Shown here: piece by piece, positions 2,679 through 50,818 of the stretch
Layout: every line of letters begins with the position of its first letter
Numbering within the stretch: position 1 is the first letter of the stretch
Assembly: GCA_010405405.1 (NCBI GenBank)
Contig: MU004232.1
Location: 1,445,481-1,509,480 of the forward strand
Source of the DNA: Microthyrium microscopicum
Lineage: Eukaryota > Ascomycota > Dothideomycetes > Microthyriales > Microthyriaceae
DNA length: 64,000 nucleotides
Direction: 5' to 3'
The notes under the pieces: model-generated
What the model saw: the letters and a program-made list of their open reading frames with translations, nothing else
Database searches by the model: none
What the model was told of the DNA's origin: nothing
Program-made: the position numbers and the translations under genes

Positions 2679-4785
2679 ATGGCGACCCTATTTCGAGACT
2701 CTTCTGCTGGGCAAATATGTCGATTGTTCTTAGGGATGAAGATCACGCCCTATGAGGACGAAAAAGATGGCTTCCAGCTGTCAAGATCTATCTCCAAGCC
2801 GGAAAAGCCATTAGCAGATAGAGATGTAGATCATGATGTGGAAAAAAGCGAAGAGTCGGATAAGGACCTCGAAAAAGAGGCTCCAGCGGATTCAGGACAC
2901 GCCTCAAAGCTTCCAGCGACTGATGCAAGTGTTGTTGAATTCACTGGCTCAGACGATGAGGATAATCCGCAGAACTGGTCAGGGGCCAAGAAAAGCTTTG
3001 TATTTTCGTTGATATGTCTTTTGACATTCTCAAGTAAGTTATCGACTTCCCAATTATGTCTTTCCAAGCTTCTTTGTTGACCATATCAAGTCTACAGCGC
3101 TTCTGCCATCATAACGCCTGCAGAGCCAGTTTTTGAACAGATATTCGGGGTCTCCGCTGAGGTCTCATCGTTGGTGCTGTCGATGTATGTTCTCGGATAT
3201 GTGAGTATTGCCTTAACCAAGGATCACTGTGTTATAAGCCCATACTAAATTCATACTAGGGGATAGGGCCGCTTATTTTCAGGTGAATTCAACTTTCACA
3301 CTGGAAGAATACACAAAATGACAGAGGCTGATTGAAATCCTAGTCCTATGTCAGAAATGCCTGCTGTTGGACGAAACTTGGCATATCTTTCTTCCTTCTT
3401 CATCTTTATAGTCATCACCGCTATCGCGTCCAGAGTTTCGAACTACCCAGGCTTAGTTGTGCTGAGATTCATCCAAGGTATGCCAATATGCTGAAGTCCC
3501 CGACGAGTAAGTGTCGTAGTTGGTTCGCAACGCTAATGTCTCTCGCGAACAGGATTTTTCGGTGGTCCTGTCCTGGCAGTAAGTAGTTCCCGTGCCAGCT
3601 TGTGTCTTGAGTTTCTCTAAGTGCGTCTTAGACCGGTGCAGCCTCGGCTCAAGATCTCTTTCCCTTCAACAAAGTGCCATACGCGCTTTCATGTTGGGCA
3701 GTATTTGCCTATGCAGGTCTGTCTTTTCAGTGATTCATGTGCAAGCATTTTACTTACGGTGCTCATAGGCCCCGCCCTCGGGCCAGTGTTGACAGGCTTC
3801 TCTGTTCCCTTGAGCACTTGGCGATGGACTTTCTATGAGACCTTGATACTTTGCGGATTTACCTTCGTGCTCCTGTTTTTCTTCCTGCCTGAGACAAATG
3901 CAGAGTACATCTTGGGCAAGAGAGCGCAACGGCTGAGACTCAAGACAGGAGACAGTAGTATTAAAACGAGATCAGAGATCCATGCTGGCAATAAGGACTG
4001 GCTCAAACTTACAGCTTATCATTTGACTATGCCCTTCAAGATCACGATCTTGGATCCGTCTGTTCTGTTTATCAACCTATACACTGCATTAGTATATGGC
4101 ATTTATGTAAGTCTCTAGTAGTCGATCCAGGATTTGCACTAACTTATTGTAGTACTCATTCTTCGAAAGCTTCCCTTTGGTTTATATAGGAATCTACGGG
4201 TTCTCCATTGGTATTATGGGAACTGTATTCTTGTCAGTCATCATAGGCGCTGCCATAGGTCTAGCCATTTATACTGCGCTTGTATGGTTCATCTATGAGC
4301 CATACACTCTGAAAAATGGTGTTGGACATCCCGAGTCTCGTCTGGTCCCTGGTATCTACGCTGCAGCCTTCGCGCCAGCTGGCATGTTTATCTTTGGTTA
4401 CGCCTCTCGGAGTGATATTACATGGGTTGCGCCCACTGTTGGCATTGCAATGTATGCCGCGTCATCATTCATCCTGGTGAACGTTATCTTTGTATACCTG
4501 CCTATCAGCTACCCGCGTTATGCCGCCAGCGTTTTTGCTGCAAATGGTGAATACACTGGTTTCTCCTTGTTTCAAAACTTCGCTAAGACTTCCATAGGAT
4601 TCTTGAGAAGCGCCATGGCTTGCGGTGCCATACACTTCTCCCAACCATTATTTGGTAATTTGGGAGTCGGCGATGGTTGTGCCATTCTCGGATCACTGGC
4701 CGCTGCCTGTGCTTTTGGATTTTTGGCACTATACTCTTACGGACCGAAGCTCAGAGCCAGAAGTAAATTTGCTGAATCCTACTGA
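2679..4785 (+). CDS. MFS transporter, DHA1-type multidrug/polyamine:H+ antiporter
   Basis: This is a plasma-membrane proton antiporter of the fungal TPO1/FLR1-like group, likely exporting drugs or polyamines. The N-terminus is acidic and cytosolic with a DNPQNWS motif before the first membrane segment. SMYVLGYGIGPLIFSP covers segment 2 and the following loop, GPALGPVLTGF is the antiporter motif of segment 5, and TWRWTFYE follows it. Nine exons: 2679-3033, 3091-3200, 3260-3282, 3344-3477, 3553-3578, 3632-3716, 3769-4106, 4153-4546, 4598-4785. They sum to 1,653 nt, or 550 residues, normal for the family. The last intron (4547-4597) is 51 nt and stop-free, so it reads through as 17 extra codons. 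The family motif FAAN-x-FLRSA is restored only when it is removed. I chose ATG 2679 because the open frame upstream begins only with a non-ATG codon. Confidence 0.9.
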
Positions 4786-6357: not shown

Positions 6358-7458
6358 TCAGAAGCCAAACTCATTCTCCAATGCCCGAATAGCCTCCAGC
6401 ATAGGCTTGGCCATACCTTCCACTTGCGCTGCTGCATGTCGAATTCTCTCGAAACGACCCCCAATAGGAATGACTGACATAAGACCAGTGGCATCATGGA
6501 ATACACTTGTGCTTGCCTGGAGGATGCGATACATGAAGTGGTCTAGTCGAGCAATATCATAGCCAGGAGTAGCATCAAGTAGTGGCTGTTGCACAATAGG
6601 TATGCCGAACCTCAGCCGCAGTGCTCTAGACTGAGCCATGGTCTCTGTGATGCTGATGTCTAAAGTAGCAGCAGCTTCTCGGACGAGTGCCAACTCTTTT
6701 CTCACAGTGCGAGCACGGGTGACAAGGGTGAATAGGATATATCTAACGTTGTAGACCAAATCAGCTTGAAAGACAGAAGCACCCTCCGTGATATGACGCT
6801 GGCGAGCCATAGCACCTTCATCGAGAAGATCCGCGATCATTTGGAAGGGGAGAGCTTTTTGAAGCGAGCGCATACGCCTGAGAAGACGATGAGTAGTAGC
6901 ATATGTCTCAAGTTGGCGGAAGTAACGGCTGACGACCAGCCATTGGGACAAGGAGAATCTACCAGTCTGGAAGGCCTGAAGAGATCCTAGGACAAGGTTA
7001 GAGGCGTGATTGACCAAGAGAAGAAACCACCAGAGAAAGGAGTCGCTAGGGCCGAGCTCGACTTACTGATGCGAAGAAAGTGGAAAAACTCTTCATTCAG
7101 GATATGGAGGTAGAAGAACGTGATACCCTCCTGTTGTGGCATTAAAGCATTCACAGCTTCGCTGACTTGATTTGTCATGATGTCAAGCTGAGACTTGATG
7201 CTGGTGACCATGTTAAGAAGGTGGGTATATTCCTCTTGGACTTCGACATCTGTCGTCAGAAGCGTCAACACTTCAAGCGCCTTCCTACAAGCACCGGTCA
7301 GTGATGACAGTATTGCAAGGGGCACGGTCTTACCCTTCTGCCCACTCTCGAGTGGTAGGATCGTGAACTCTTAAGTTAGGCGTATGGTTTTCGATGGGCA
7401 CTTCCTGGTGGGCGATGGCATGCTCAAGCATTTCGATTCGTATCATAGTGGGATCCAT
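6358..7458 (-). CDS. Tandem helical family, member 1 (323 aa, unknown function)
   Basis: I do not recognise a named domain. The protein is Leu/Ala/Arg/Glu-rich and predicted mostly helical, with no signal peptide or membrane segment. Three exons: 7458-7334, 7284-7067 and 6986-6358, which sum exactly to 324 codons. The start is the ATG at 7458, giving MDPTMIRIEML. The first intron falls in phase 2 just after the motif EWAE. The second is phase 1. Both positions match members 2 and 3 downstream on the same strand, so the three are paralogues although this one is the most diverged. It has a longer first exon (125 nt against 44) and a longer third exon (629 nt against 539-548). It resembles the helical N-terminal regions of fungal STAND-type proteins only in general character, so no function is assigned. 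Confidence 0.75.
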
Positions 7459-8831
7459 GGCTGCAGTAGAAGGGAAGAGAGAAGAGTGGGCCGGCTGGAG
7501 TGCAATCTCTCGCCTTCCAAATCGTTGATGATAGCGTCAGCAGTAGTGGTGAAGGTGGTTGCGAGGAGGAGAAACAGGCGAGGACCAAAGTGGGAGGAAG
7601 AAACCCAAGATGGGGGCTAACGACCGAGAGGAGGGCGACCAATTCCAGTTTCCATAAAGGGTAATTCGACTGAGGGAACCGAGACTATTTGACAGTCTTT
7701 GAGGTGCTAGTAATCTCCGCGGCGTTGAAACTTCTCACATCTATAACTTCATCAAGTTGTTAACTTTAGGCACATTTTGGTAGTAAGACTTCACATGTAT
7801 GTGCGCACCAGTGCGGAAATATAGTAATAAGACTTTCGATACTTAGCGAGCAGAGATAGGACTTTATATAGATGATAACCCCCATGGTGCGCCGCAGAGC
7901 GGACTGTCAGGCTCGTTGACAGCGATGCTGCTTGTCATATATTCTAGTAGCTCATGACGAAGAAGTGTTCATTAACATACGGAAGTCTAACACAGGCTTT
8001 GTTCCTGTTAGTGTGTGAAAATGAACAAAGAAATGTTGAGTATCATACTGATGATAGCCTATGGACGATGAAGGCACGTAGCTTAGATGCGCAAAATGAC
8101 TGTTCGGGACAATGAAATGAATGCAATGAGACGTTGATTACAACGACTGTGATTCTCATGTCTGGATGACTCTGGCTCATGATTGGGGCCCGAGGTCAGT
8201 CACGCAAGAAACATTACAATTTCTTAGCGGATGACGGACTCTACGCTGACCAAATCAACTGCATGTCATCTCGACCAAAGCAGAGTATCCGCTGAGGTTC
8301 TCAAGACCTCGGTGAAATTCGCCTTATGCTCGCCTACTGGAAAACTGGGACGAGTTTAGGGAATGACGAATAGGCAAAGTATAGGAACGCAGCATTCTGA
8401 GATTCCACAACTTTTCCTTTGTTGAAGCATATGGTCATGATGTGATATATCTGCTGACAGGCTGGAGGTAGCTGCAGTGATGGATATCAGCCGGGTTGAT
8501 CAGATGCTGGATGAATGCCGCTTTATATATGAGAAGGACGCTCATCTCAGCAAGACAAACTGTTTGGCGCAGGCTATGTTTGTTATCCCAGAGTAACGTC
8601 ATTTGTTGACCTGTTGAACCAAGCGCAGCATTTCCACACATTGAACCTCCCAAACACAATGGCAAGGAGAGAAAAGTCCCTATGCAACTTCATAATGTTT
8701 GCAAGTTATGGACAATTAGAGGTAGTTATGTGTTCTAATTCTTTCCCGCTAGAAAATCATGAACCGTGGGCTACAACAAAATCTACAATTTCAAAAGACA
8801 CAGTGGTTGACATCCTGTGTAGCCTGGCTTC
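7459..8831. other. Intergenic between trio members 1 and 2
   Basis: No supported gene. Open frames of 70-80 codons appear on both strands but lack splice partners or family motifs. It holds the presumed promoter of member 1. Confidence 0.5.
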
Positions 8832-9799
8832 TCATGCTTGAAATCGTAACTCGCTCACCTTCCCAAGCGCATCCTTGACTCTACCATCCAGCCGCAACAC
8901 CCCGTCCATCGCCTCTAGCAAATCCTCCCCGTGAAGTTTCAACCTACCATCCATGGCAATGAATCGAGCTTGGAATGCAAGAAGAGATTCGTGCGCGTGG
9001 ATACTAGGCAGCTCAGAACGCACAGCGGTAGGGATGGACTTTCCCATCTCTCGACAGAGACACCAGTACATTGTCTGAAGCTCTTCCAATGCCGCAGCCC
9101 ATGTCGTCTCAAACTCCTCGGTTTGCTCGGATACAGCCACAAAGGTAAGGATCATCTCATCGTATGCATCTTGATGTTGTCCGGAGTAGGCCTCCCGTTT
9201 TGATGTGATTTCTTTGGCAAGGCAGTGCAATTCATGAGCCAGGTTGAGGGGCAGAAGAGAACTTCTAGGGAAATCGAGAGTCCCGAGGATACGATGTACG
9301 CTCGCGGACAGTTGTAGTTCGTATAACTCTTTGGATCTGCGCAGGTACTCGGATCCTGTAATTTCGCTGGCTTGAAATGATCTCAGATCAGCTGGGAGCA
9401 GTTAATAGTGACCTCATGTGGATGGGAGTTTTTTTGAATCAGAAAGTTGGAGCAAGAAAAACTTACTACTAGCTGTGGTGCGAAAGAAGTCGGCTGTGAG
9501 TTGTGACATTCGTTGGAAAGCAACATCGACACTAGGTAGGCCACTGTGAACACGAAAGAGTCCATCAAGAGCAGCAGTAATATCGCGGTCAATCGAATTG
9601 AAAGTGGCGCAGTGGCTTTCCAACTTCGCGACGGCACGTCGGTTCTCAGGAGTGGAGGATATCAATGTGTTAAGTAGATCTTTTGACTGTCTAGTCGTTA
9701 TTAGCAGTTGATGCGATGCTTCTACAAAGGACTAAAGGCTCCGGAAATGACATACCTTTCCGCCCATGCCTGCATTTCTTGCCGCTGATCTTGGCCCAT
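8832..9799 (-). CDS. Tandem helical family, member 2 (268 aa, unknown function)
   Basis: No named domain is recognised. Exons: 9799-9756 (44 nt), 9690-9467 (224 nt) and 9370-8832 (539 nt), together 269 codons. The first exon encodes MGQDQRQEMQAWAE and stops in phase 2. Exon 2 opens with RQSKDLL, aligning with RKSKQLT of member 3. The C-terminal half shares with member 3 the spaced blocks SGQH/PGQH, FETTW/FETAW, HESLLAFQARFIAMDG/HEGLLMFQACFLAMEG, a following GxDLLEAM/GxDILKAM and a C-terminal LDGRVKDAL-type block. No signal peptide or membrane segment is seen, so a soluble helical protein is likely. Donor sites are GTATGT and GTAAGT. Confidence 0.8.
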
Positions 9800-10563
9800 C
9801 TTTGTTTGAGTATTTATGTACCTGAAAATTCTTGAGGTTCTATATAGAACGATGATTATGCACAGCTATAGAGTAGATTTGTGTGTGGGGAAAAGCGGTT
9901 ACGCAAATGAATCGGGGTTGATGAAGGTGGTGGGCAAGAGTGCGTAGAAAATTCTATGAGGCTAGAGAGCAGGACCCAAACAACTACCCCGAGAACACTG
10001 GGCGCCACTAGTTCAAGTTGAGGGCAACGATATATCATGTCCTTCGACACAGAGAGCTCTGGGGCTGCTAAAACTGCACTATATGGACAGACTACTCAGA
10101 AAATGCAAACCAGTTTCTGCTCCAGCCACCAAAAGGATGTACTATAGATCTGCTTGAAGTTTCGTGAACTCTTTCCCTTGCTGAAAGACACTCTAGTGCT
10201 AGGTCGCGTCTGGGCGCTTACAAGGAAAGTCAATGGCCGAGTCAATAGGCTTGCGCTCACATCCTGCTTATATACCAGTAGGATGGCCTTTTTGTCATGC
10301 GAAACTATTTGAAGGACGCTATAATTGCTATTCTGAATCGTGAGCTATGTCATGTTGTAATGCTAAACAACAAGTTTTGTGCGTTCGAAATACCGTTGCT
10401 TTAAACGTCACGAGAAGGAGAGGACACTAATTCTTCGACAATATAGTTTGATTTGGCCAGTCGGCTGGTAAAATTATTCCTCTTCGAAGCATCACGTCTC
10501 TCTAGCCGAGGAGACCTTTCACGCTCTAAGAGGCAGGCCTTGTTCAAACCTTCTAGTAGACTT
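9800..10563. other. Intergenic between trio members 2 and 3
   Basis: No supported gene or repeat. It holds the promoter region of member 2 and the 3' flank of member 3. Confidence 0.5.
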
Positions 10564-11531
10564 CTATCCTCTTAGATCAACGAGCGTTACAAGGGCGTCC
10601 TCAATCACGCCTCCCAAAGCAAGCACCTCTTCCATCGCCTTCAGAATATCTCCACCGGGTCCCTTCAGATCGCCCTCCATAGCAAGGAAGCACGCTTGGA
10701 ACATAAGCAGCCCTTCATGAGTTGTTATGCCCCCAGCGCTCGACTCTGCAACAGGGAGACGATCACCCATTAGACGGCGAAGGTGTGAATACCAAAAGTG
10801 ATGCCGATTTCGTGATGTTGTCCATGCCGTCTCAAAACGATCCATGTGCTTGGATATGACAAGTAAAGACGACTCTATATCCTGCAATATTTCCTTATGC
10901 TGGCCGGGATGTGTCTCCCCTTCGAGCGGCAGCTCTATTGCAGAGTAAACCAAGTCTTCTGCGTAACCTAGTGGAAGTAATTCTTCGCTCTCGTTCATGT
11001 CTCCGGCGATGTCATTGATGCTTGCATAGAGTTCCAGTCTCAGCAGCTTCTCCGATCGACGATAGTATTCAGGAGCGGAGATGTCTCCAGATCGATACTT
11101 GTCTACATCGCCTGAAAACAGTTAGCGTTGAAGTGAAATGGACCAAATATGGCTTTCTGAGTAGACGGGTTGAAGGGGTTAGAAACTGGGACCAAGGTAA
11201 ACTTACTACATTTGGTGGAGGAAAAGAACTCCGGAGTGAGCTCTGAAATCCGCGGGTAGATCCCTTCAATGTTATATAATCGGTCGAGAACCATCCAAAG
11301 CTTTTGGGCGGCATTGGTAACATAGATAGTTAAATCCTCGATGACCTCGGAATATCTTCCCAAGGTCGAGATTATGCGCTCTCTCTCTTCAGGGCCTGCA
11401 GTCAAAGACTTCGTGAGCTGCTTGGACTTTCTGATTGTTGGTCAGTAGCTGCGCATCTCATGGTTAGAAAAGAAAGAAGTCGCATACCGTTCTGCCCAAC
11501 GAAACAACTTTTCTTCCGGATCAATCTCCAT
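10564..11531 (-). CDS. Tandem helical family, member 3 (271 aa, unknown function)
   Basis: No named domain is recognised. Exons: 11531-11488 (44 nt), 11430-11207 (224 nt) and 11111-10564 (548 nt), 272 codons in all. The first two exons are exactly as long as those of member 2, with the same phases (2, then 1). Exon 1 encodes MEIDPEEKLFRWAE; the WAE motif lies at the splice junction in all three paralogues. The C-terminal half keeps the same spaced blocks as member 2 (PGQH, FETAW, THEGLLMFQACFLAMEG). The protein is acidic, helical and without signal peptide. Equal orientation and spacing indicate tandem duplication. The function is unknown. Confidence 0.8.
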
Positions 11532-13090
11532 TTCGCTCGATTTGGTGGATCTTCGACAGCTGTTGTGAGTTATATATTACAACAAAGGGCAGATATAGGA
11601 CAGGCCGGAGAATTGAGAAACAGAATGCGCAAGCGATAACGCGGGCGGCAGGAAATGTCCGAGGAGTGTGCGGGAAAGATTGCAGTGGAAGATGAGGCAG
11701 AAGAGCAGGGCAAAAACAACTACGCCCAAAAGCTACGGGTATCAAGTGGCGCTAGGCAAGCCGGAGGCATGGGGCAAACGTGTCTCCATGGCAGGCATGA
11801 AGGGTGGACCTGCGGCAGCATATGGTTGGCTGCGCAAAGGATCCTCGTAGAGATACCGCGAGAGTGTCGCGAAAGTCGCATGTTGAAGTACGAACCCGAA
11901 CACGGTCGTGAAGCGCAGCACCATATTAACTAGCAGCAATGAACATACTTGTGCGGGACAGTGACGGGATGTTATAGAGCATCCATACATGTTCAGAATA
12001 CATACAATATCTTACGTGGTGATGACAAGCTGGACTAAGGGTTGATATGATCTGTGCAGATAATCTATGCTGATGTAGCGCTGCGTGTATCGTAGTCTGG
12101 AAATGACACTGACCATACCTTTGAGCAGAACAAAGAAAAATGGACATGGACACTGGAAGTTGAGTCCCTCAAGACATCATAAACTTTGAAGTGATGCAAA
12201 CCTCCGCACTGGTGCTTAGCATAGCCGTCGAGGTATTCGTAGCCACAGCAGACATTCCAAGCCAGAAGTTGTTGAGATATATCCTCAATCTGTCCTTGAG
12301 GACTTCAGTGTCTGCAATGTATGTACAGGGCAAATTTAGAGCTGCTGTCTTTGTTGGAAACGACAATGAACCCCAAATAGACGTAGTGACTTAAGTAGTG
12401 GCATTGTATCTTTCTAGACATGCTCCAGTGATATCAGCTTCCGAAGCAAAGAATACTCTGGTGATATAAGATAGACTCGTGATACATTTGGAATGTTGAA
12501 AGTATATTGGTATGATGGATCTGAGGATAAGCTCGTAAGAAAAGAAACGGCCAGATGTTTGGCATGACAATCGGCGGCTGATCATGTCTTTGCCTTCATT
12601 GACTATGTCAAGCGACTTTATTTTGTCAAGATATACTGTACTATGACTCCTGAGTATGAGGGGACAATCTTAGACCAGTCATTTATGAGCTCCCTTCAAG
12701 GTCAAGGTGGTCTTAGGCACTCAAAATGTAATGTGCAGAGCAATATTGCAGGTTGCTCATATCATGCGTCCTAATATTTGTAAATCCTGAAAAACGAGAG
12801 ATGCTTGTTCCAATTCGATGGGCAATCTGACAGACCAGTTTGGACGAGGTGAAGTTGGAGGTCGGTACCAATCAATGAATCAACAACCCCTGAAACCCTG
12901 CAAAACATGACAACAAACATGACTCGCGTGGACTGCACAAATAGAGATGAGATGAGATGAGATGAATAAGCATACTATTTCACTGCTACAACACAAGCGC
13001 TAACAACGTATCCAGCCACACAATACATCGCGCTTTCAAGCTAGGGGAATACTAAGATTAAGACATACATCCAGACTAGTCAGACCCTTT
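11532..13090. other. Intergenic, no supported gene
   Basis: Several open frames of 60-92 codons overlap one another here without splice or family support. A short GAGAT microsatellite lies near the tubulin end. Confidence 0.5.
12944..12965. repeat. GAGAT pentanucleotide microsatellite
   Basis: About 4.4 perfect copies of GAGAT stand in tandem, downstream of the tubulin gene. Confidence 0.8.
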
Positions 13091-14837
13091 TTAGTACTCC
13101 GCCTCAGCACCCTCATCACCGTCAAGAGTGTCTGCCGCAACCTCTTCATAATCGCGCTCAAGAGCAGCAAGATCCTCACGAGCTTCGGAGAATTCACCTT
13201 CCTCCATACCCTCGCCAACATACCAGTGGACAAAGGCACGCTTGGAGTACATGAGGTCGAATTTGTGCGAGAGAGCGGACCAGGCCTCGGCGATGGCGGT
13301 GGTGTTGGACAACATGCAGCTGCAAAAATTAGTTGAAGATTATTAAAATTGAATGGAGCAAACTTACACAGCGCGGTTAACCTTGGCAAGATCTCCACCT
13401 GGAACCTGCTGGGGTGGCTGGAAGCAGATACCAATCTTGAAGCCAGTTGGGCACCAATCAACGAATTGAATGGTGCGCTTGGTCTTGAGAGTGGCCACGG
13501 CAGCGTGGACATCCTTTGGCACGACATCACCACGGTACAACAAGCAAGTGGCCATGTATTTGCCATTTTGAGGGTCGCACTTGACCATCTGGTTGTGCTT
13601 CTCGAAGCAAGACATTGAGATCTCTTGCACGGTGTGAGCCTCGTGGCCAGACTTGGTAGGCGAGACAACTGGAGCGTATGCAACGAGAGGGAAATGGATA
13701 CGAGGATATGGCACGAGGTTGGTTTGGAATTCGTTAAGATCAACGTTTAGGGATCCATCGAAACGGAGGGAGGCGGTAATGGAAGAGACGACTAAGAAAC
13801 GGTTAGACAAGCTCTCAGTAATAATTAATATCGTATTGCTTACCCTGAGCAATGAGTCGATTCAGGTTTTCGTAATTAGGACGCTCCATGTCAAGGTTTC
13901 GGCGGCAAATGTCATATATAGCTTCGTTGTCGACCATAAAGCTACAGTCGGAGTGCTCAAGAGTAGTGTGAGTGGTGAGAATCGAGTTATATGGCTCAAC
14001 GACAGAGGTGGCGGTCTGTGGAGCTGGATAGACACAGAATTCCAGCTTGCACTTCTTGCCATAGTCAACAGAGAGGCGCTCCATGAGAAGAGCACCAAAA
14101 CCAGATCCAGTACCGCCACCGAAGGAGTGGAAGACCAAGAAACCTTGGAGACCAGAGCAGTTATCGGCAACGCGGCGAACCTTGTCTAGGACTTGATCGA
14201 TCAATTCCTTTCCGACGGTGTAATGACCACGAGCATAGTTGTTGGACGCATCCTCCTTTCCAGTGATCATCTGCTCAGGGTGGAAGAGACTTCGATAGGT
14301 GCCGGTTCGGACTTCGTCGACAACGTTGGGTTCCAAATCGCAGTAAATGGTTCGTGGGACATATTTGCCCTGACCTTGAGAGAAGTTAGCGCGTCGTACA
14401 ATGGAGTAGTGAATTTAATGGTACTGACCAGTCTCGGAAAAGAAGGTGCTGAAACCCTCATCGTTCTCGGCAGCCTTGCGCTCTTCGGTCAGATAACCAT
14501 CGGGCTATTTTATTAGTCAATAAGATGGATTGTTCACGTCATGCTTTGGGATGAAAGTTACCTGAATGCCGTGTTCGAGGCAGTAGAGCTAGCGGCAAAA
14601 TCAGTCCAATGTTCTAGTGCAAAGCGCGGAACCAGCAACAAGTCGTAAGACACCGCGAAATGGTCGGACAGGATGGTATAACTTACCTCCCAGCAGGAGT
14701 TTGCGATTTGGCAACCAGCTTGGCCAACTATCAAAGAAGAAATATCAGCATCAAATTTGGGCGTAACATGGATTCTCGAGGCGGTCAAGACGCGTAGCGG
14801 GGCAGTACATACCGTTGAGAGAGATGACTTCACGCAT
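13091..14837 (-). CDS. tubA: Alpha-tubulin
   Basis: Alpha subunit of the microtubule heterodimer; it binds the non-exchangeable GTP. The start [31 protein letters not shown], the tubulin signature GGGTGSG (within [25 protein letters not shown]), the block [21 protein letters not shown] and the acidic tail [10 protein letters not shown] with C-terminal tyrosine are diagnostic. Seven exons: 14837-14813, 14727-14687, 14588-14562, 14504-14429, 14374-13844, 13791-13368 and 13319-13091. They sum to 451 codons, giving exactly the canonical 450 residues. The 5' half is split into very small exons, as is common in fungal tubulins. The GEGMEEGEF loop and the tail are intact, so this looks like a functional gene. 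The symbol follows filamentous-fungus naming. Confidence 0.97.
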
Positions 14838-20075: not shown

Positions 20076-23000
20076 TCACTGCTTCGAAAAGCCCAACTGC
20101 CTCCCCGACCTTCTCAGCGCATCCAACCTATTCGCCGCCATCCGATCTCCCGCACTCGCACCCTTCAGATAAAACGCCTTCGCCTCCGCCAAATTAATCT
20201 GCGTCCCAATTCCCCTCTCCAAAAAGAAGCCCAGCTGGCAAAACGCGCTCACTAGCCCATCGTTCGCCGCCATCTTCGCAAACGCAAAGGCCAACTGCTC
20301 ATTCGCGGCCCACAAGCCTTGCTGACCCCACCAGAAACAGTTGCTAAGTTCAAGCGCGCTTTCCGCCTCGCCTTGGACACAGGCGACGAAGTGGTAGTGC
20401 AGCGCGAGCGAGTGGTCGACGGAGAAGGCCATGTCGTTGTCGGATTTGGAGTAGGCGAGCGCGAGGTGTAGTTGAGCGGCGGCAAGGCCGAGGGAGGCGG
20501 CTTGTTGGATGTAGGAGCGGGCGGACATTTCATTAGGCGGTAGAAGCTTTTTGTTGAGGGAGATGGACTTTTGGTAGGATTTGGTGTAGAGCATGCCGAG
20601 CAGCTGGAAATCTGGTTAGCTGTGTTGGCTGGTATCAATGAGAGGACTTACATAGGGCGCTAAGGGGCCGTCTTTGTCGGCGCGGGTGACAGCTTGTTGG
20701 AGGAGCGGGATGGCGGCTTTGTGGTCCTTTTTCTTGTCAAGTTCGCCTTTAAGAAACGCTTTGGCTAGACGCTGCGACAAAGTTAGGTGCTGGCGCTCTT
20801 GTAACGGGGATTTACTTACGTAGCCGCAGGGACTATCTTGGCCGTAGCCACCTTTGCGGTAGTATTCGAATGCTGTGGCATTCTCTCGCCGGACTTCGTA
20901 TTTCCTTCCCAAGTGATATGCTGCGCGGAGGTATCCTTTAGAAAGTGCTGATAGGTAGAGCTCCTGGGTGGCATCTTCATCCAGTTCAAACCACCGAGCT
21001 TTTAGAAAAAGTGCCCGAGCATGACCAACCTGTACATGTCTTTCAATTATGTTGCGAGCATCGAGTATGGTCTCAGTGTTGATCATAGGCTTGGCAGACT
21101 TGTAGCCAACTTTTCTTAGCCGTTTGTTGAATTTGGAGACATTAGATGCCAGACGAAGAATATCTTCTGCCCAATCAAGATGTTGACTGACATCTTGGGT
21201 AGACATGACTGCTGGTTTCTCGCGTACAAGTCTAGACTCGAGCTCGTCTGGACGCACAGGCACGGTAGCATGACCAGATGATATCTTTGGTATGAGAATC
21301 TCGAAGTCAATCAAAGTGAGATCAGAGCTTGCGATAGTGGCGGTCCCATTGAGGGACGAAACTATGGATGCAGTATCGTTGAAGGTGCTGTCCGCACGGA
21401 CAGATGCAGGCAGTGCTTGAGACGACGCGGTGACCAGTGATGCAGATCTTTGGTGTCCATTCCCGTGAGAGTTTGTTACATCTGATATGGGAGTATAATG
21501 TGGCATAGCTGTTTGCGACACTGGGCTAGCCGGAAGGGACGGTTGACTGGCCGGGGAAACTTGATAGGAGTGGAACTGTTGCGGTATGCCAGGAATAGCT
21601 GGCAATTGAGGAGGTGAATTCGGAATAGGAGGAACTGGTGGAGCCACGACAACTTCAGGAGCGAATTCTGCTTGTCGCTCCCGTTCCAACGTGTTCGTAC
21701 GTCGGATAGGATGCAGGGGAAGTGGCATAGATGGTGCTGGCGATGACGGCGCTGGAAACAAAGACACTCCCTTGAAAGAATTGGTATTGGGTCGTGATCG
21801 CATGGAAGTTGATGTTGTGTGCGAATACTCAGTGGCTGACGAGGCATGCGATGCCGGCCTGGACGAAGCGGCGAGCGTGGTTGCACTAGAGTCTCGGTTC
21901 GAGATTGATCTTTGGCTGAGTATGGGTTGTTGCTGCTGATGTTGTGGCTGTAAACGCTGTAATGATCCTGAGCGAGGAGGAAACCTCGGGGCCGGATGCT
22001 CCCCGTTATGGGTTCGAGGGCTTTGAGAAGGCAGTGTATAAGGAGCAGCCACTCCTATGGGATATGGCCGGGGACTCTCCGTTGTCTTTCTAAAATTCAA
22101 AGGTAGTACCGGTTCCTCCGGAAGACAGTCTTCACCACTACGGCCAGGCCATGGGGCAGTGAGAAGACCTTCAATGGCCTTCTCGTTCTCCGATACAACT
22201 GAAGCTGTTGAACCAGGCCTCATATCAGGAATGGCGGGAACCTGTAGTCCTTGTGTTTGGAGTGGCGTCCTTGTGCTGAACGGATTTACTCTGGGCTGAC
22301 TTGGCAATTGTGTCTGCGATACTGGAGATGTAGGTCCTGAGGATGGATTTCTATTGCTGGGCACTGAAGCATATTGTGTCACTCTTTCATAGGGGTCCAA
22401 GTCGGACGTTCGAAGCGGAGATTTCGCGGGTAGAGGTGGCGAGTCCAATGCTGGAGGAGGAAGAGGTTTGAAATCCCCATCTGGCGATGTTGGCATATTC
22501 CTTGACTGCAAACTCTGCAACTCTCCTGAGCTTGGTGATAGTGGAGTCTGAGGTAGATTTTGCGGCATCCGAGGACTAGTCTGATGATATGCGTGAAGCT
22601 TTGGAGCCATCGATTCTTTAGACATGGCAACGGAAGGCTGAGATCCTCCCATTGAAAAATTTTCTGTTTTAGAATCGACCGGGCTCATTGCGCCTGCTAG
22701 AGCATTGCAGCGCTCTCCAAGGTCCTCCAACATAGGTTCTATCATCAGCAATAGGCCCATATTCTGGCCTGCCCCAGGTCTAGAAGCTTGCGTTAGCCGA
22801 CTGCCAATTCACTTCGCTATGTTTATAGTGACATACATTTGAAGTGCTGAGACCAGCATTTGCATTGCTGAGCGCAAAGTCCTGCCCAACGACAGATAGT
22901 TTTTGAATACATTCTCTGTAAAGAGGTACTTGGCCCGTCCTTTCACATCATCATCTTCTGCCTCCTTAACATACGACGGCAAAAAGAGTTTGCGCAACTC

Positions 23001-24943: not shown

Positions 24944-27202
24944 CTAGCTATTGATCATATTTTCCGTGCCCGGCATCTTCGCCTCATACTCAAACTTCAA
25001 CACCGCCGCCTGGCTCTTCTCAATCTCCACCGTCCACGCAACCTCTCCATCCTTTTTCAACGTCGCCCTGGCTTTGCCCCATGCCTTGCGCGCCTCATGT
25101 GCCGGCGCACCAGTCTTCACCACATCGCCCTCCTTGATCAAGCCTCTTGGACTCACGATATCGATGCGGAGCCGCTCGTCCTGTGAAAGTGGCACTTGAT
25201 CTAGCACCAACAGCTCCACGGGCGCAGGTCGTGTGTTTGTCACAAAGATGCTGCGGCTGAATACGTGTGCGCGCTCCTTGTTGAATATGCCTTGTGTGCT
25301 GCGATGTAGCGTTGGTTTTGGGTAGCTTATGTGAATCGCTGGGTCGACGCCGAGCGGGATGGTGAATGCCTGATTTGGCGAGACACGCGCCAGTGCGTGG
25401 GTGCCAAGGAACGAACCATCGAGAGTAATGCCGGCTGTTCCTTTGAGCAAAGTTACTGAACTGGATGGGTTCTTGAGTTTGGCGCGCAGGAAGGCGGCAG
25501 CGCGGAGTTTGGGGATTGCGATATGGGAGAGCGCGATGGAGGTGGCGTTCAGTGTCGCGATCTTGTACCGGCGGGCCAGGGTTGAAGGCGCGAGAGTGCG
25601 AGTACCAGGTAGGTCGTATGTTGCGGTCAGGCCGTAGTCTTCCCAGGCGGACTCTTCAAAGTCAAGGGCGGTAGGAGCCAGAGCGTCCAAAGATTCGCCG
25701 CAATCTTCGATAGTGGGATCATAACCGGCATAGGCATATTCTTGGACGTTGCTGGCAGCTGGTGCTGCTCCTGGAGGCGCGGATCTGGCGGCGCCGAAGC
25801 TTGGGAGTATGCTCGCTTTCTTAGATTTCCTCGCGCTGCTAATGCCTCTGTGAAGTTCCACATTGGGAGCGGAGGCAATCATTTGCATTCTGTTGCCGCC
25901 GAGCTGGTGAGAAGCGACTGAAGAACGAACATGTCTATTTTGCTGTGGAGCAGCGTGAGCATATGCCTTTGCTTGGGAGCTGATCTCCTTTTGTATCTTT
26001 GCTTGAGTAGCAGATATCTCTGCCTTGCTGAAGATCCCATCGTTGTCTGGATTGTAACGGGACAAGGCAACTTGCCATGGATGCATAGTTGGTGCCTTGT
26101 CATCGAGGCCAGAGTACGAAGTCTGGGAAGTGGAGAGAATAACTTTCGCATCAGTCCAGGTTTCAGACGTAGCATTGCGGACTTCTGCTCGATAGACGAT
26201 GGAAGCAGTCTTCTTGACAGAATTTATGCTTAGATCGTACCATGGTAACCAAAAGGCTCCGGTGGTCACATATGAGAGCGATAGGGAAATTTCGTTTGGT
26301 GAAGTTGTCACTTTGCCTTCGCTTTTCTCTGGAGTCTCGGACGACTCTGGAACCTCCTTGGATAGAGTGATTGATCCAATGGAACTTCTTCGAGATGGAC
26401 CTGGAGTAAACATCGCAGTTTCTAATCGAACCACAACTCGGTATACGTAAGCGGGCCAGAACGTGGCTCTCTCGGATCGAACTTTTTCGATCTCTTTATG
26501 ACGCTGTTCTCTTTCGCGAAGCTTCTTGCGACGAGCGAGATCTTTGGCTTGGACCGCTTCCTTGTTTTTCTCCTTCTCAGCCTTTTCAGCACGCTTCAGT
26601 CGCCATTCAACCTTTGACTTTTGCTTGGTAAGTTTCTCGATCTCAATTCCAGCGTTGGTCTTTCCAAGATGCAGTCTTGACCGTTCAGACTCGTAGACAT
26701 GCAGTGCTTCTTCGAGCTTCTTTGCATCCGAAAACTCATTTGTAATGGTCTTGGTGAATTGTTCAAGCTGGTACAGTTGAACAGAGCACGAAGTCTCCAA
26801 GTCTGCTTGAGTTTCAATGGCCTTGTTTAGTCGATTTCGCTCCTGGCGGGAGATTTTGACATCGTCAGCATCATCGTCGCTATCAGAGTAGTCGCTCTCA
26901 AGGTCATCATCGTCCAGCTCTTCTGGTGGTCCACAGACGTCATCAAAAGCAATCTTGTTGATCACTTTTTCGACGGTGATGTCGGTAATTGTTGCTTCTC
27001 CGTTGCCCGTGCCTTCGATTTGCAAGCTTTGCTCGTCTATAGTTTCTGCGAGACCATATATTTCGATCTCGTTTTGGCCTGGTTGGAGCGCAATAGATGG
27101 GATCTCACGGACCACATGTGCTCTAGCTGGGTATAGCGTTACCGTCTTTGTAGAAAGTTCTCGGATATTGAACGATTGACTTGGGATGTTCTCTTCCGCC
27201 AT
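24944..27202 (-). CDS. DUF4139/DUF4140 (mucoidy-inhibitor-A-like) protein
   Basis: A single-exon gene for a 752-residue protein. The N-terminal DUF4140 region begins with VTLYPARAHVVREIPSIALQPGQNEIEIYGL. A very acidic stretch (DDDDLESDYSDSDDDADD), a long coiled coil (about residues 130-275, with KLTKQKSKVEWRLKRAEKAEKEKNKE) and the DUF4139 beta-rich domain follow. That domain includes LSLSYVTTGAFWLPWYDL and ends VEIEKSQAAVLKFEYEAKMPG. I placed the start at 27202 (MAEENIPSQSF), where homology begins. An in-frame ATG at 27289 would add a 29-residue leader that does not look like part of the family. The family is widespread in fungi and bacteria; its molecular function is not established. Confidence 0.85.
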   Translation of the reverse strand: MAEENIPSQSFNIRELSTKTVTLYPARAHVVREIPSIALQPGQNEIEIYGLAETIDEQSLQIEGTGNGEATITDITVEKVINKIAFDDVCGPPEELDDDDLESDYSDSDDDADDVKISRQERNRLNKAIETQADLETSCSVQLYQLEQFTKTITNEFSDAKKLEEALHVYESERSRLHLGKTNAGIEIEKLTKQKSKVEWRLKRAEKAEKEKNKEAVQAKDLARRKKLREREQRHKEIEKVRSERATFWPAYVYRVVVRLETAMFTPGPSRRSSIGSITLSKEVPESSETPEKSEGKVTTSPNEISLSLSYVTTGAFWLPWYDLSINSVKKTASIVYRAEVRNATSETWTDAKVILSTSQTSYSGLDDKAPTMHPWQVALSRYNPDNDGIFSKAEISATQAKIQKEISSQAKAYAHAAPQQNRHVRSSVASHQLGGNRMQMIASAPNVELHRGISSARKSKKASILPSFGAARSAPPGAAPAASNVQEYAYAGYDPTIEDCGESLDALAPTALDFEESAWEDYGLTATYDLPGTRTLAPSTLARRYKIATLNATSIALSHIAIPKLRAAAFLRAKLKNPSSSVTLLKGTAGITLDGSFLGTHALARVSPNQAFTIPLGVDPAIHISYPKPTLHRSTQGIFNKERAHVFSRSIFVTNTRPAPVELLVLDQVPLSQDERLRIDIVSPRGLIKEGDVVKTGAPAHEARKAWGKARATLKKDGEVAWTVEIEKSQAAVLKFEYEAKMPGTENMINS

Positions 27203-27795
27203 TTTGGAGTTTATTTGAAAAGGCTTGAGTATTGGCAAATAAATGGGTGAATGTGGTTGAAAGTCGAGTGCCAAGAGGTGTCGTAGCAATGCTAGTCTCA
27301 GTGTATGATGTTGAAGGAAAAGGGTTTAGAAAGTTGCTCTATTCTTTCTCAGCATGGGGAAAGGACCCTTTTTATGGCTCATGAGGAGCTGGAGGCATCC
27401 ATGATAATGAGGAGATGATGGTTGCCTTCAAGCCGCTTGGGAGAGGCTCGGCCAGTCAAGACTGAACTCAGCCACCACCCCCAAAAGTCTATCGACGCCC
27501 CTGAAGCGGTGTTGACTTTCCAGCTTTCTTTGAGTTAGTACATCACACCTCCATTGCACAATATGACTGCGGTGCTCAGGTTTGCATCTTCAAGGATTTA
27601 CCGAATAATTTTCTCGAAATAAAGATCAAAAAGTTTGTTCTTGCTTCCCATGTTGATGATTGAAGTGGCAACTCAGCAAGGCAACAGTCCACACTCCACA
27701 GCATCAAGCCTCACAGGAACCTCATTAACCGAAGTAGAGAACTGGTTTGTATCGTTTATTCTAGAGAGGAGAAGCCTACTCACAGACCTGGCGTC
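27203..27795. other. Intergenic, DUF4139 promoter side
   Basis: No gene seen between the DUF4139 start and the degraded transposon. Confidence 0.5.
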
Positions 27796-32174: not shown

Positions 32175-34121
32175 TTAATATCTCACTACCTGAACCAGCG
32201 TCTGAGGCACAGGCTGCGTAGGCTTTGGTGCACCTGCAGGCGGCGGCACCACAATCACTGGCGTCGAAGTTGAAGGTTTCTCCGGTGGTGGTGGCAGGTA
32301 AGTCGCTCTCGCTACTAGTCCCTGCGTTGACCAGTGCACTGCTGGTGCAAGATGGAGCAGCGATGAAGTTGAAGATGTCGGCTTGCTTGCTGGTGGTGCT
32401 GGTGGTGGTACCTGGATTGATGGAAGTGCTACTGGTGCAGGTGCCCGAGAGGATGACGGCGAGATCGGCGCTGGCGCGGTGCTGGCCTGGCTCCATCCGG
32501 TTGATAGAGGTCTAGGAGCATCTGCATTTCCGGGGCCTGCAGGTGCAGGTGCGGGAGCGGCGGTTTCCTTGAGGGGCGCCCAACTGGGTGTTTCGATTGT
32601 TGGAATTGGTCCATTTGCTGGCCCGTTTGTGGTCGCGGGTTTTGGTGCTGGTGCTGGCGCAGATGGAGCTGGTGCTGGTGCAGATGGAGCTGGAGCTGGT
32701 GCTGGTGCGGAGGGAGCTGGCGCTGGAGTAGATGGAGCAGGAGCAGGAGCTGGGGCTGGGTCAGACGAGAACGGTCCTGGATCAGATGATGGTGGAGGGT
32801 TCCACGGAGCGGGTGGAATTGTCGCTGAAGATTGCTGGACTGGCGCTGGAGATGGTGTTACGATGACGATAGTGGTACTAGTAACGGTTGTGGTTGACTC
32901 CTGTCGTGGAGGTGCTACTGCCGAGGACTGTGGAATTGGAACCTGTGTCATCAATGGCGCTGGAGCTGTAGCCGGAACGGAACTCTGGGCCATTGGTGGT
33001 GGACCATCATCGTCTCGTCCTCCACGTGGAGCTGGTGGAGGGCCATCATTGTTATCCTTTCCGCCTCGTGGCGCGGGCGGTGGCCCTTCGTTATCATCAG
33101 GGGCTAGAGCTGGAGATGGACGGGCGGGAGCTTGGGAGATTGCGGAAGGGACCGAAGGTGCCTTGGGTGACACTGTTGTTCTACTTCCTGGATTTGGGCG
33201 GCCGCCTACAGTTCCAGTGGGTGCGAATGGCGGCGCATCATCGTCATCTGGATATGCTGGACGTGGAGATGGCGAAGGAACACTCGGCTGCGTAGGTCGG
33301 TATGTAGGCCGGTATGTAGTTCGACTTGAAATTGGTGAGATTGGCGACCACAGAGGCTGTGTTGGCTGAACAGATGATGATGGTCGCTGTGTAGTTCGAC
33401 TCCATTGTGGTGTGTTTGCCGGCGGTGCCTGCCTTGGGGTTGTCTGAGTCTGCCAAACTGGTTGACCTTGTGGGGGAGCTGGCGACGATCGGGGAGGAGA
33501 GCTTGCCCACGGAGGAGTCCAGGTTGCGTATGGTTGCTGTGTCTGTCGCGGCGCGCTGGTCTGTCGTGGCGGATTCGAGGACCAAGATGGTGTATAAGCA
33601 GATGACCATGCTGGCGGTGCTTGCGCCCAAGGTGGAGCTGTTGTTGTTGCGCGAGCTGGAGCTGGTGCTTGCCGTTGCGAGTTGAGATATGGCACAACTT
33701 CTTCGTACCAAAGACCGCCAATAGTAATACAAGGTCCGCCATAGAAGGTAGTTTCATGCTGATCTCTGTCGTAGCCACGGCCCGCTCGAGCGTTTGACAC
33801 ACTTTGAACGAAAGAGCTGAGACTGCTCTCAAGAGATGCACTCTGCTGTCTGCACATTGCCTGATCATGAGATGGTGGACCCGGCTCTAGGTTGATGATT
33901 GGACGAACTCCATTGCCCCATGGGTCGGCGGCGATTTCCTCAATGCTGTCTGGAAGTCGAGCTGCTTCGGATGGCAGAGGCGCGGCATCGTCTAGTGGAG
34001 GTAGAGCAGCTTCAATTTTAGATTAGTATACTGTTACCAATAATGTGCGTAGGATTTGAAGCATACCAACTTCCCGCCATATCGCCGTAAAGACAACCAC
34101 AAGTTCGATTAGTCTCGTCAT
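32175..34121 (-). CDS. Secreted Pro/Ala-rich repeat protein
   Basis: A 629-residue protein of two exons, 34121-34067 and 34009-32175 (630 codons). Exon 1 supplies a short hydrophobic leader (MTRLIELVVVFTAIWREVAA), probably a signal peptide. The N-terminal 120 residues form a small conserved-looking domain with GNGVRPIINLEPGPPSHDQAMCRQQSASLESSLSSFV and ETTFYGGPCITIGGLWYEEVVPYL. The rest is low complexity: Pro/Ser/Thr/Gln-rich, then APAPAPSAPAPAP repeats near residues 400-440. No GPI signal or membrane segment is seen at the C-terminus. It is likely a secreted or wall-associated, O-glycosylated protein. The mirror strand shows a 328-codon Gly/Ala open frame that is only the antisense of these repeats. 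Confidence 0.7.
32640..32765. repeat. Coding minisatellite (Ala-Pro repeats)
   Basis: Units based on GCTGGTGCTGGTGCAGATGG recur about five times with variation. On the minus strand they encode the APAPSAPAP repeats of the secreted protein. Confidence 0.75.
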
Positions 34122-41015: not shown

Positions 41016-42497
41016 TCAAAATTCGGTACTCCATCGCTTTTCCATATTGCCTCTTTCGGATCGAAGCGGAGCTGGGCCTAGCCACATCTGTTCGCGAGCA
41101 GTCTTTTCGGATAGACCTTTGATGAGAGCACTGATGTCGATTGACCCCATATCCACTGACCCATTAGAGTCATGGTATAAAGCTCCGTCCGTGGCGTCTT
41201 CCTCGGCATTCAACATTATGGCCGAGTCATTGTTGAAATTTGAAATGCGTTCGCGACCAGAATGAGAGTGGCTGTGCTTGAGCCCATCCAAAGGCCGAGA
41301 TGTTGGAATCTGCAGTTTCTCTAGATGTGCATTTCGAGAAGGAGCAGAGGTGAGAGGATTAAGACCAGAGGTAGTGTTGGCTTTACTGCGCAGAGGGCGT
41401 AGACGAGGCGAAGGCAGGGCTTCTTCATCAGAAGAGTTTGGGGAAGGAACTGAGGAGACGGACCGTGGTGACACACGAGGACTTAGGTTTTCGCTGTTGC
41501 GATTCATAGTCTGAGTAGAAGGTAATTGTGGAGAAAGTTTGGGTGACGGTCGCCCAGACGCGGTGTCCTGGCTTGCAATTGTGCTGAGATGCGGACGATG
41601 TACAGACTTGCGATTTGATGCTCTTGAAGTGGATCGATATGTGGCACGAGGACGCGCTATCCTAGACGGTGACGGGCCATCATATTCATAATCCGTATCA
41701 TCCTCTGATTCAGAAGTCAATTGTAGATGGAGAGCATTCGCGCGCTGCTTTGCTCGTTTGCCAGCAGAAACCGGCCGTGATGAAGGAGTAGGAACCCGAA
41801 GACCATGATCTAGAGTGCCAGGTATTGATGTTCTGCTGCCTTGCTTCTCCACGGATGGCCCTCTACTTTTACTCGTATTGTCAATGACAGTAACTCCCTT
41901 TTGTCCATTCATGAAAGCGACGGATGGAGGCGGCGCTTTCATCCATCTTCGATCTTCCGGCCTAGCAGGTATCATTGACACGATTGCTGGATGCATGTCG
42001 TTCACCGGAGGTATCTTATAAGATCTTTGTTTCCAACCGCTTCCAAATTCCCCATCATCCTCGACCTTTTCATCTATCCATTCAAACTCTTCTGCTGCTC
42101 GCCGATATCGTCGCTTTCCAGTTCCACTATGCGCTTCTCCGGGTTCTCTGACGCCATCGACTTGACTTATGCTTCCGCCGCTGCCTACACTTGCAACGCT
42201 GGTGCGGTTCGTACCTGGTCGACATTGTGAATCTTTTGTATTTTTGCGCGGTCGTTTCGCAGTTGATGAAGGACCCATTAACATCTCTTCGCGCCAATAC
42301 GCGTTCATTTCCGATGGACCGGGGTGTAGATATAAATTAGGATCCTTCTCGGCGGCCACTTCCATTGCTTTGCGATCGCGCTCGGCGGCCTTTTTGCGTT
42401 TGCGCATGTATTTAGCATTACTACATGGACCGCAAGAGACATAATAGAACAGGGCGGACTGGACGCCTCGGACGAACCAATGGTCGGGTATTATCAT
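41016..42497 (-). CDS. Conserved-looking basic low-complexity protein (493 aa)
   Basis: A single-exon gene. The first 35 residues (MIIPDHWFVRGVQSALFYYVSCGPCSNAKYMRKRKKAAERDRK) contain one short hydrophobic segment followed by a strongly basic helix, reminiscent of a Pezizomycotina family of unknown function anchored by its N-terminus. The middle is Ser/Pro/Arg-rich and disordered, with RRYRRAAEEFEWIDE and GWKQRSYKIPPVNDMHPAIVSMIPARPEDRRWMKAPPPSVAFM as the more ordered islands. The C-terminus holds a short conserved-looking helix (DISALIKGLSEKTAREQMWLGPAPLR). I assign no function. Confidence 0.7.
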   Translation of the reverse strand: MIIPDHWFVRGVQSALFYYVSCGPCSNAKYMRKRKKAAERDRKAMEVAAEKDPNLYLHPGPSEMNAYWREEMLMGPSSTAKRPRKNTKDSQCRPGTNRTSVASVGSGGSISQVDGVREPGEAHSGTGKRRYRRAAEEFEWIDEKVEDDGEFGSGWKQRSYKIPPVNDMHPAIVSMIPARPEDRRWMKAPPPSVAFMNGQKGVTVIDNTSKSRGPSVEKQGSRTSIPGTLDHGLRVPTPSSRPVSAGKRAKQRANALHLQLTSESEDDTDYEYDGPSPSRIARPRATYRSTSRASNRKSVHRPHLSTIASQDTASGRPSPKLSPQLPSTQTMNRNSENLSPRVSPRSVSSVPSPNSSDEEALPSPRLRPLRSKANTTSGLNPLTSAPSRNAHLEKLQIPTSRPLDGLKHSHSHSGRERISNFNNDSAIMLNAEEDATDGALYHDSNGSVDMGSIDISALIKGLSEKTAREQMWLGPAPLRSERGNMEKRWSTEF

Positions 42498-42980
42498 CGC
42501 GATAGGTAGGGGAGCGAATGTTTTGCGGGAGAGGTGGTGGTGTTGAGGGGGGACGTAGTAAAGTGTTTCTGACGTCCCCCTTGTTTGAAGGTGTGGTAGG
42601 ATGTGCAGTCACAGAAGGCACGATGCGCCAGGATTGGCAACTGCGTTGGAGGTGAGATTCCGCGATAGGAAGCTGTAGGAATTATGGCGGGAAGGCGCGG
42701 TGACGATGATGCTAGGTTACCGCTCTTGAAAACAACGTCAGTCGGCGATTTGATGATGAGAGGAATGAAAGCCGTGTATTTTGTATTATTTGGTGCATGA
42801 GATCAGCTGCCTGCCTTTACCAACAGTCAATTGCTCTTTCTCCTTCTTCAAGTGCCTCCAGATTCCAGACAGTCGAATAGCTGGGAGGTGTAGGAGGGTA
42901 GTGGTGATGTATTAGGGTGGGCAATAATACTGGAAGATGAGACTGCGGAGACCCTTTTTCGTTGGCGGCGCAGGGTATGA
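42498..42980. other. Intergenic, left flank of the MULE
   Basis: No supported gene. Open frames here run across the transposon end and are chance. Confidence 0.45.
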
Positions 42981-49974: not shown

Positions 49975-50818
49975 GATTGAGGGAGTGATGTTGTGGAGAA
50001 AAGAAAGTAGTCGAGGGTGTCCGCTGGGGAATTGCTCGTAGCGCTGCTGGTAATTTATTGAGGAGTAAGATTATTCAGAAGTGAATTTATGATGAAGAAA
50101 AGGCAAGAAAAAGTTCAGACAGTTCAATGTTGCGTGTGTTTTGGAAGAAGAATTTTGGGGTGATGGTGGTGAGAGATGTTGCGGCAGCAGTTGGTAGGAA
50201 AATGATGAAGAACTTGGAACAACAACAAGATCACGGCAACAAAGTCGAAATCCGGGGCCACGCTAGCAGGGATATTTCCACGCTCAGTAACAGTGAAAGA
50301 GGAAGGAGCGCCTACTGGAGTCACTGCCTCATTCGGAATAAGCACCTCAGCACAAAAGATGTCATCCTCCAGTGAGTGGCGGGTTGAGGTGACCGACCAG
50401 GACACAGTGGAAAGGCGGCGATTTTTCACGAGATTCAAAGACAAGCAGTTTATGCTCTAATTATGGATGCGATGATCCGAACATATTTGCTAGATCAAGC
50501 TATTTGGTAGGTTGTATAAGATGTAACTTGTGCGTATATATTGTTGAAAGCATGACCAGTGAGCGCTCGGGATGCAACAGTACTGCTGGAACTATTCAGC
50601 CAAGAATCTAATGTTTTGAACTCGAGTCTCTATATATCTTTCAAGTCATGATACGAATCAATATCTCTCAAATACGTCCAACTCGCCCAGTAGGTACTAT
50701 ACGTCAAATACAAACATCATACCTCGCTTGTCTCCAAACTATAGCAAATAGCATCCAAAAGTCCACTAACTAGGATCCATTCAATGTGAATGCCACCTGA
50801 TACCACGACAGTGACTAA
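49975..50818. other. Intergenic, SNF2 promoter side
   Basis: No supported gene. A 106-codon minus-strand open frame (50124-50444) has no recognisable features. Confidence 0.45.

What the first reader, a model, noticed from the sequence alone, without database searches (positions are those of the whole stretch)
6358..11531. Tandem trio of a possibly undescribed helical gene family with conserved intron phases
Three minus-strand genes stand head to tail. In all three, intron 1 is phase 2 directly after a W-A-E motif and intron 2 is phase 1. Exon 1 and 2 lengths are identical in members 2 and 3 (44 and 224 nt), and exon 2 is nearly so in member 1 (218 nt). Members 2 and 3 share spaced C-terminal blocks (GQH, FET-x-W, H-E-x-LL-x-FQA-x-F-x-AM). 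I recognise no domain, catalytic motif, signal peptide or membrane segment. Seen directly: the gene structures. Inferred: tandem duplication and lineage-specific expansion.
Basis: partly seen in the sequence, partly recalled or inferred. Interest (0 to 1): 0.7.

Follow-up and report, generated by a model that had tools for sequence, protein, structure and literature searches.

The report
Three old tandem fungal orphan genes
Three neighbouring genes in what looks like a fungal genome descend from one ancestor and encode probably soluble, helical proteins without a convincing match in the family libraries searched; they look like an ordinary uncharacterised gene family rather than a new kind of system.

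Summary
Three minus-strand genes (m3 11531-10564, m2 9799-8832, m1 7458-6358) splice into open frames of 271, 275 and 323 aa, with the exon lengths, phases and motifs reported. All 6 introns have GT-AG ends and a branch-point-like site. Homology is real but uneven: m2 and m3 are 34% identical throughout; m1 is detectably related only over about 115 N-terminal residues. Saturated synonymous sites in m2/m3 suggest an old duplication. New: m2 and m3 share a 40-nt element 157-200 nt before the ATG; a pattern from both copies matches no third place in the assembly. No convincing match in Pfam, NCBIfam, PADLOC or solved-structure sequences. Genome searches found no further copy, but m2 and m3 queries also missed m1. 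Structure models of third exons are helical but unusable (mean pLDDT 44.5, 39.2). No test supports an NLR role. Lineage-specific expansion was untestable without eukaryote collections. Function stays open.

The parts
11488..11531 (-). m3 exon 1 (44 nt), ends after W-A-E plus two bases of the next codon
11431..11487 (-). m3 intron 1, phase 2, branch-point-like CTGAC at -15 (a second, CTAAC, at -37)
11207..11430 (-). m3 exon 2 (224 nt)
11112..11206 (-). m3 intron 2, phase 1, CTAAC at -14
10564..11111 (-). m3 exon 3 (548 nt with stop); protein 271 aa
9756..9799 (-). m2 exon 1 (44 nt)
9691..9755 (-). m2 intron 1, phase 2, CTAAT at -14
9467..9690 (-). m2 exon 2 (224 nt)
9392..9466 (-). m2 intron 2, phase 1, TTAAC at -14
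8832..9391 (-). m2 exon 3 (560 nt with stop); protein 275 aa
7334..7458 (-). m1 exon 1 (125 nt), with an N-terminal leader absent from m2 and m3
7285..7333 (-). m1 intron 1, phase 2, CTGAC at -17
7067..7284 (-). m1 exon 2 (218 nt)
6987..7066 (-). m1 intron 2, phase 1, CTAAC at -15
6358..6986 (-). m1 exon 3 (629 nt with stop); protein 323 aa; C-terminal part not detectably related to m2/m3
11692..11731 (-). element shared upstream of m3 (161-200 nt before ATG), 78% identical to the m2 copy
9956..9995 (-). element shared upstream of m2 (157-196 nt before ATG)

Best explanation
An old tandem duplication produced three protein-coding paralogues in a filamentous fungus. Shown: introns at homologous positions, a coding pattern of change between m2 and m3, homology of m2 and m3 over their whole length, and homology of m1 over the N-terminal module. 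Inferred: the proteins are soluble, intracellular and mostly alpha-helical (about 0.75), and act by binding a partner or themselves through helical surfaces rather than by catalysis (about 0.3). In this view the shared N-terminal module (exons 1-2 and the start of exon 3) keeps a common contact, and the divergent C-terminal part gives each member its own partner. The element kept upstream of m2 and m3 suggests those two are co-regulated (about 0.5).
For: Gene structure and alignment; shuffle controls with N-terminal against C-terminal split; profile alignment of m2/m3 exon 3 to m1 exon 3 covering only its first 54 aligned columns; codon-position bias and NG86 dN 0.65 against dS 3.5 (saturated, so only indicative) for m2/m3; branch-point-like sites in 6 of 6 introns; upstream element; no catalytic family match; helical periodicity.
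Against: No transcript evidence. Structure models are too weak to confirm a fold (mean pLDDT 44.5 and 39.2) and cover the third exon only. The binding role rests on the absence of other signals and is not tested. The homology of the m1 C-terminal part could be lost below detection rather than replaced. m1 has no clear copy of the upstream element.
Confidence: 0.5

Rival explanations
1. The genes are part of a fungal non-self-recognition system (HeLo-, Goodbye- or other STAND/NLR-associated helical domains), acting as helical executioner or adaptor proteins.
For: Small helical proteins in tandem would fit. A corpus of thousands of specialised fungal NLR N-termini, some possibly novel families, is reported (PMC9815663, section 15 read). 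The genome has 19 NACHT matches.
Against: No Pfam match. No member is fused to a nucleotide-binding domain, and no other copy of the module was found in the genome, within the limits of that search. None of the 19 NACHT matches lies on contig C3, where the window is. No membrane-type segment.
Confidence: 0.06
2. The family is old and widespread in fungi but absent from the curated libraries, with a housekeeping or developmental role, and is not lineage-specific.
For: Synonymous sites are saturated and m2/m3 differences sit mainly at third positions, so these duplicates have been kept a long time. That the libraries hold few uncharacterised fungal families is my general knowledge.
Against: No relatives could be looked for in other fungi, and none appear in the libraries used.
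Confidence: 0.3
3. m1 is not a full paralogue: its C-terminal part was acquired or rebuilt, making it a fusion that shares only the N-terminal module.
For: N-terminal parts of m1 score 77 (m2) and 79 (m3) against a largest shuffled score of 49 and 42; C-terminal parts score 27 and 24, below the shuffle means. The profile comparison aligns 54 columns at the start of exon 3 only.
Against: Simple divergence gives the same picture when only three sequences are known. Low-confidence models show the first helices in similar positions, but the m1 model was made with the others in its alignment.
Confidence: 0.3
4. One or more members are decaying pseudogenes.
For: Strong divergence and no expression data.
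Against: All three are open through three exons with intact splice signals, and the m2/m3 differences are concentrated at third positions. For m1 the codon-position bias is weaker (0.67, 0.56, 0.72 against m2).
Confidence: 0.05

Closest known systems
Tandemly duplicated orphan or lineage-restricted gene families of filamentous fungi (general kind, from established knowledge, not from a call)
   Same: Head-to-tail paralogues with shared introns and no known domain
   Different: Taxonomic restriction not tested; a shared upstream element is retained in two of three members
GEM-interacting protein (PDB 3qwe; an F-BAR-type helical protein by recall)
   Same: Best profile match to a solved chain, E 0.061, over profile positions 111-203; probably a generic helical resemblance
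   Different: Not significant; no Pfam BAR-type match to any member
HeLo/Goodbye-type domains of fungal NLR systems (PMC9815663, abstract and section 15 seen)
   Same: Fungal and, by recall, small and helical
   Different: No profile match; no NACHT match on this contig

Membership tests
Tandem paralogue family | Head-to-tail genes with significant sequence similarity | tested here: met
   for m1 only the N-terminal ~115 residues
Tandem paralogue family | Shared intron positions and phases | tested here: met
   both introns at the same aligned positions, phases 2 and 1, in 3 of 3 genes
Lineage-specific expansion | Restricted to a lineage, with copy number varying among relatives | not testable with these tools
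   No eukaryote genome collection; a prokaryote scan with one peptide pattern gave no relative
Fungal NLR/STAND-associated helical domains (HeLo, Goodbye and others) | Profile match to a known N-terminal effector domain | tested here: not met
   lowest Pfam E-value among the three proteins is 0.082 (Rab11-FIP3), well under its cut-off score
Fungal NLR/STAND-associated helical domains (HeLo, Goodbye and others) | Fusion with, or neighbourhood of, a nucleotide-binding NLR gene | tested here: not met
   19 NACHT matches at E <= 0.001 in the genome, none on contig C3; only the NACHT model PF05729 was tried, not NB-ARC
Shared helical fold | Confident predicted structures with the same fold | tested here: inconclusive
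   all-helical, mean pLDDT 44.5 and 39.2, third exons only; m2 was not predicted as the lead sequence
BAR/F-BAR domain proteins | Significant profile match | tested here: not met
   E 0.061 to one chain; no BAR-type model listed

The most novel reading that the evidence does not exclude
An undescribed family of helical fungal adaptor proteins in which a conserved N-terminal module is combined with C-terminal parts that diverge or are replaced between tandem copies, with two members under one shared control element found nowhere else in the genome.
Probability: 0.15. Interest if true: 0.5.

Novelty: new member of a known kind. Interest (0 to 1): 0.22.

Why it matters
Uncharacterised tandem families are common in fungal genomes (general knowledge), so this is a small addition. 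Its use is as a clean case: introns at homologous positions argue for common descent where a large part of one protein has no detectable similarity left, which lets one ask whether that part diverged or was replaced.

Tried and rejected
Rejected: an NLR/STAND link. Rejected as not significant: Rab11-FIP3 and DUF7000 for m1, PAH_ZNF598 and Propeptide_C1 for m3, Beta-prop_HVO_0234 for m2 (E 0.082-0.25); hydr1_PEP for m2 (E 0.018, 14.3 bits against a cut-off of 168.45); GEM-interacting protein and three other chains; six chains for m1, the best two being the enterotoxin component and Motility Associated Killing Factor E at E 0.19-0.2.

Rejected: a further copy in the window. In tblastn of the three proteins, outside the three genes the best matches were E 0.30 for m1 (3356-3499, plus strand), E 0.20 for m2 (7741-7601, minus strand, between m2 and m1; 47 positions, 32% identity) and E 1.3 for m3; m2 also matched the antisense strand of its own exon 3 at E 0.04. 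I take these as chance and did not follow them up. With intact introns in the way, the same search gave m1 against m2 and m3 only E 0.38 and 0.46, and m3 against m1 E 0.12, so a copy as distant as m1 would not stand out.

No fold search was run, because the models were below the confidence at which a match means anything. The viral, phage, plasmid and E. coli collections were not searched. A 5.8S rRNA search of the assembly gave no match, but only 39 of 1125 first-look candidates were scored; the species was not identified. A paper search by assembly size gave no usable identification (listing only). Paper searches for the family or for helical NLR domains (listings seen, plus outline with abstract and section 15 of PMC9815663) turned up no description of it; this does not show that none exists.

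The m2 model used a wrong acceptor site and gave a broken frame; it was corrected, which is the one used. YN00 failed for all three pairs and NG86 gave no dS for m1/m3.
Full report
What is there. The window lies on contig C3 of a 36.9-Mb assembly in 20 contigs. An alpha-tubulin exon, short GT-AG introns with CTRAY-like branch sites and the genome size point to a filamentous fungus, probably an ascomycete; that is my inference, and the species was not identified. Three minus-strand genes stand head to tail: m3 (11531-10564), m2 (9799-8832) and m1 (7458-6358). Spliced, they give open frames of 271, 275 and 323 aa.

Exons 1 and 2 are 44 and 224 nt in m2 and m3; in m1 they are 125 and 218 nt. Intron 1 is phase 2 and follows W-A-E in all three; intron 2 is phase 1 at the same aligned position in all three. 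The C-terminal motifs are present in m2 and m3. All 6 of 6 introns have GT-AG ends and a YTRAY site beginning 14-17 nt before the intron end. For comparison, the slightly stricter CTRAY occurs in about 10% of random 37-nt stretches of the window; 5 of the 6 sites fit CTRAY and one is TTAAC.

Homology. m2 and m3 are 34% identical over 272 positions. m1 aligns to m3 over 141 positions and to m2 over 118, at about 23% identity. Local scores are 389 (m2/m3), 97 (m1/m3) and 77 (m1/m2), against the largest of 500 shuffles of 60, 60 and 58. Splitting the proteins shows where the relation lies. N-terminal parts (m1 residues 36-150, m2 and m3 residues 9-125) score 77 (m1/m2), 79 (m1/m3) and 170 (m2/m3). 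C-terminal parts (m1 from 151, m2 and m3 from 126) score 27, 24 and 219, with shuffle means of 28.2-29.7. A profile of m2/m3 exon 3 aligns to m1 exon 3 over 54 columns at its start only (probability 30.9, E 0.0005 for one comparison).

Age and constraint. m2/m3 differences by codon position are 0.51, 0.35 and 0.66; NG86 gives dN 0.65 and dS 3.5, so synonymous sites are saturated and the ratio is only indicative. Against m1 the bias is weaker: 0.67, 0.56, 0.72 (m2) and 0.65, 0.54, 0.72 (m3), with dS 4.5 for m1/m2 and none computable for m1/m3. I infer an old duplication with constraint on the m2/m3 proteins.

A shared upstream element. m2 and m3 share 40 nt at 78% identity, 157-196 and 161-200 nt before their ATGs; BLAST of about 700 nt upstream of each gives 28 of 35 identical, E 1e-4. 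A 32-place pattern from these two copies, with up to 3 mismatches, matches only these two places in the genome, and 0 in the reversed-pattern control. A shorter pattern in the window gives the same two, against 0.01 expected. The patterns were built from both copies, so their own matches are by construction; the information is that no third place was found. The upstream stretch of m1 gave no match to either below E 0.21; one of its weak matches (25 nt, 76%, E 0.72), lying just before the m1 ATG, overlaps the end of the element in m3, and a 22-nt repeat at 77% lies upstream of m1 and m2. I read these as chance. A non-coding stretch kept between old duplicates suggests a control element; this is inference.

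Copies in the genome. Searches with m3, m1, m2 and m3 exon 2 at E up to 10 found only these genes. Sensitivity was limited: queries with m2 or m3 did not report m1, and m1 reported neither of them. A paralogue as distant as m1 could be missed.

Families and folds. The lowest Pfam E-value for any member is 0.082. NCBIfam gave one match among 3 members, E 0.018, far under its cut-off. PADLOC gave none among 3. Solved-structure sequence searches gave none for m2, 4 distinct sequences at E 0.061-0.93 for the three-protein profile and 6 at E 0.19-2.3 for m1; m3 was not searched alone. A prokaryote genome scan, which used a single peptide pattern around W-A-E, gave 8 pattern matches and no confirmed relative. 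AlphaFold2 on third exons gave all-helical models with mean pLDDT 44.5 (m3 aligned with m2) and 39.2 (m1 aligned with both); these are unusable for a fold claim. Hydrophobicity periodicity at the helical angle exceeds shuffles (7, 6 and 1 of 1000 shuffles reach it for m1, m2, m3), and not at the strand angle (589, 180 and 916 of 1000). 'Helical' is thus plausible, not shown.

NLR question. The genome has 19 NACHT matches at E <= 0.001, none on C3. I read section 15, on unannotated N-termini, of PMC9815663. It describes a long (over 500 aa) helical domain and thousands of specialised N-termini; nothing in it ties these to the present proteins.

Mechanism. The most likely reading is a family of soluble helical proteins acting by protein contacts, with a common N-terminal module and diverging C-terminal parts. 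The gene anatomy and homology are shown; solubility rests on the absence of membrane-type segments; the binding role is inference with low confidence. The finding is real and correctly described, but ordinary in kind.

Noticed in passing
9956-9995 and 11692-11731: A 40-nt non-coding element shared upstream of m2 and m3; a pattern from both copies found no third place in the genome.
   Followed up: partly
7741-7601 (minus): Weak match of m2 residues 91-130 in the stretch between m2 and m1 (tblastn E 0.20, 47 positions, 32% identity); probably chance, possibly a relic.
   Followed up: no
13818-14414 (minus): Alpha-tubulin exon next to the trio.
   Followed up: no
24947-27325 (minus): Long frame with DUF4140 and DUF4139 domains of unknown function.
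   Followed up: no
52254-53429 (minus): Frame with a Clr2-type transcription-silencing domain, about 2 kb from an SNF2-type helicase frame at 47266-50070.
   Followed up: no
whole assembly: No 5.8S rRNA match (39 of 1125 candidates scored), so rDNA may be missing, withheld or missed; 19 NACHT matches, 4 of them on contig C8, none on C3.
   Followed up: no
20619-22808, 32178-34022, 41019-42608 (minus): Long stop-to-stop frames (730, 615 and 530 codons) without a Pfam match at E 0.001.
   Followed up: no
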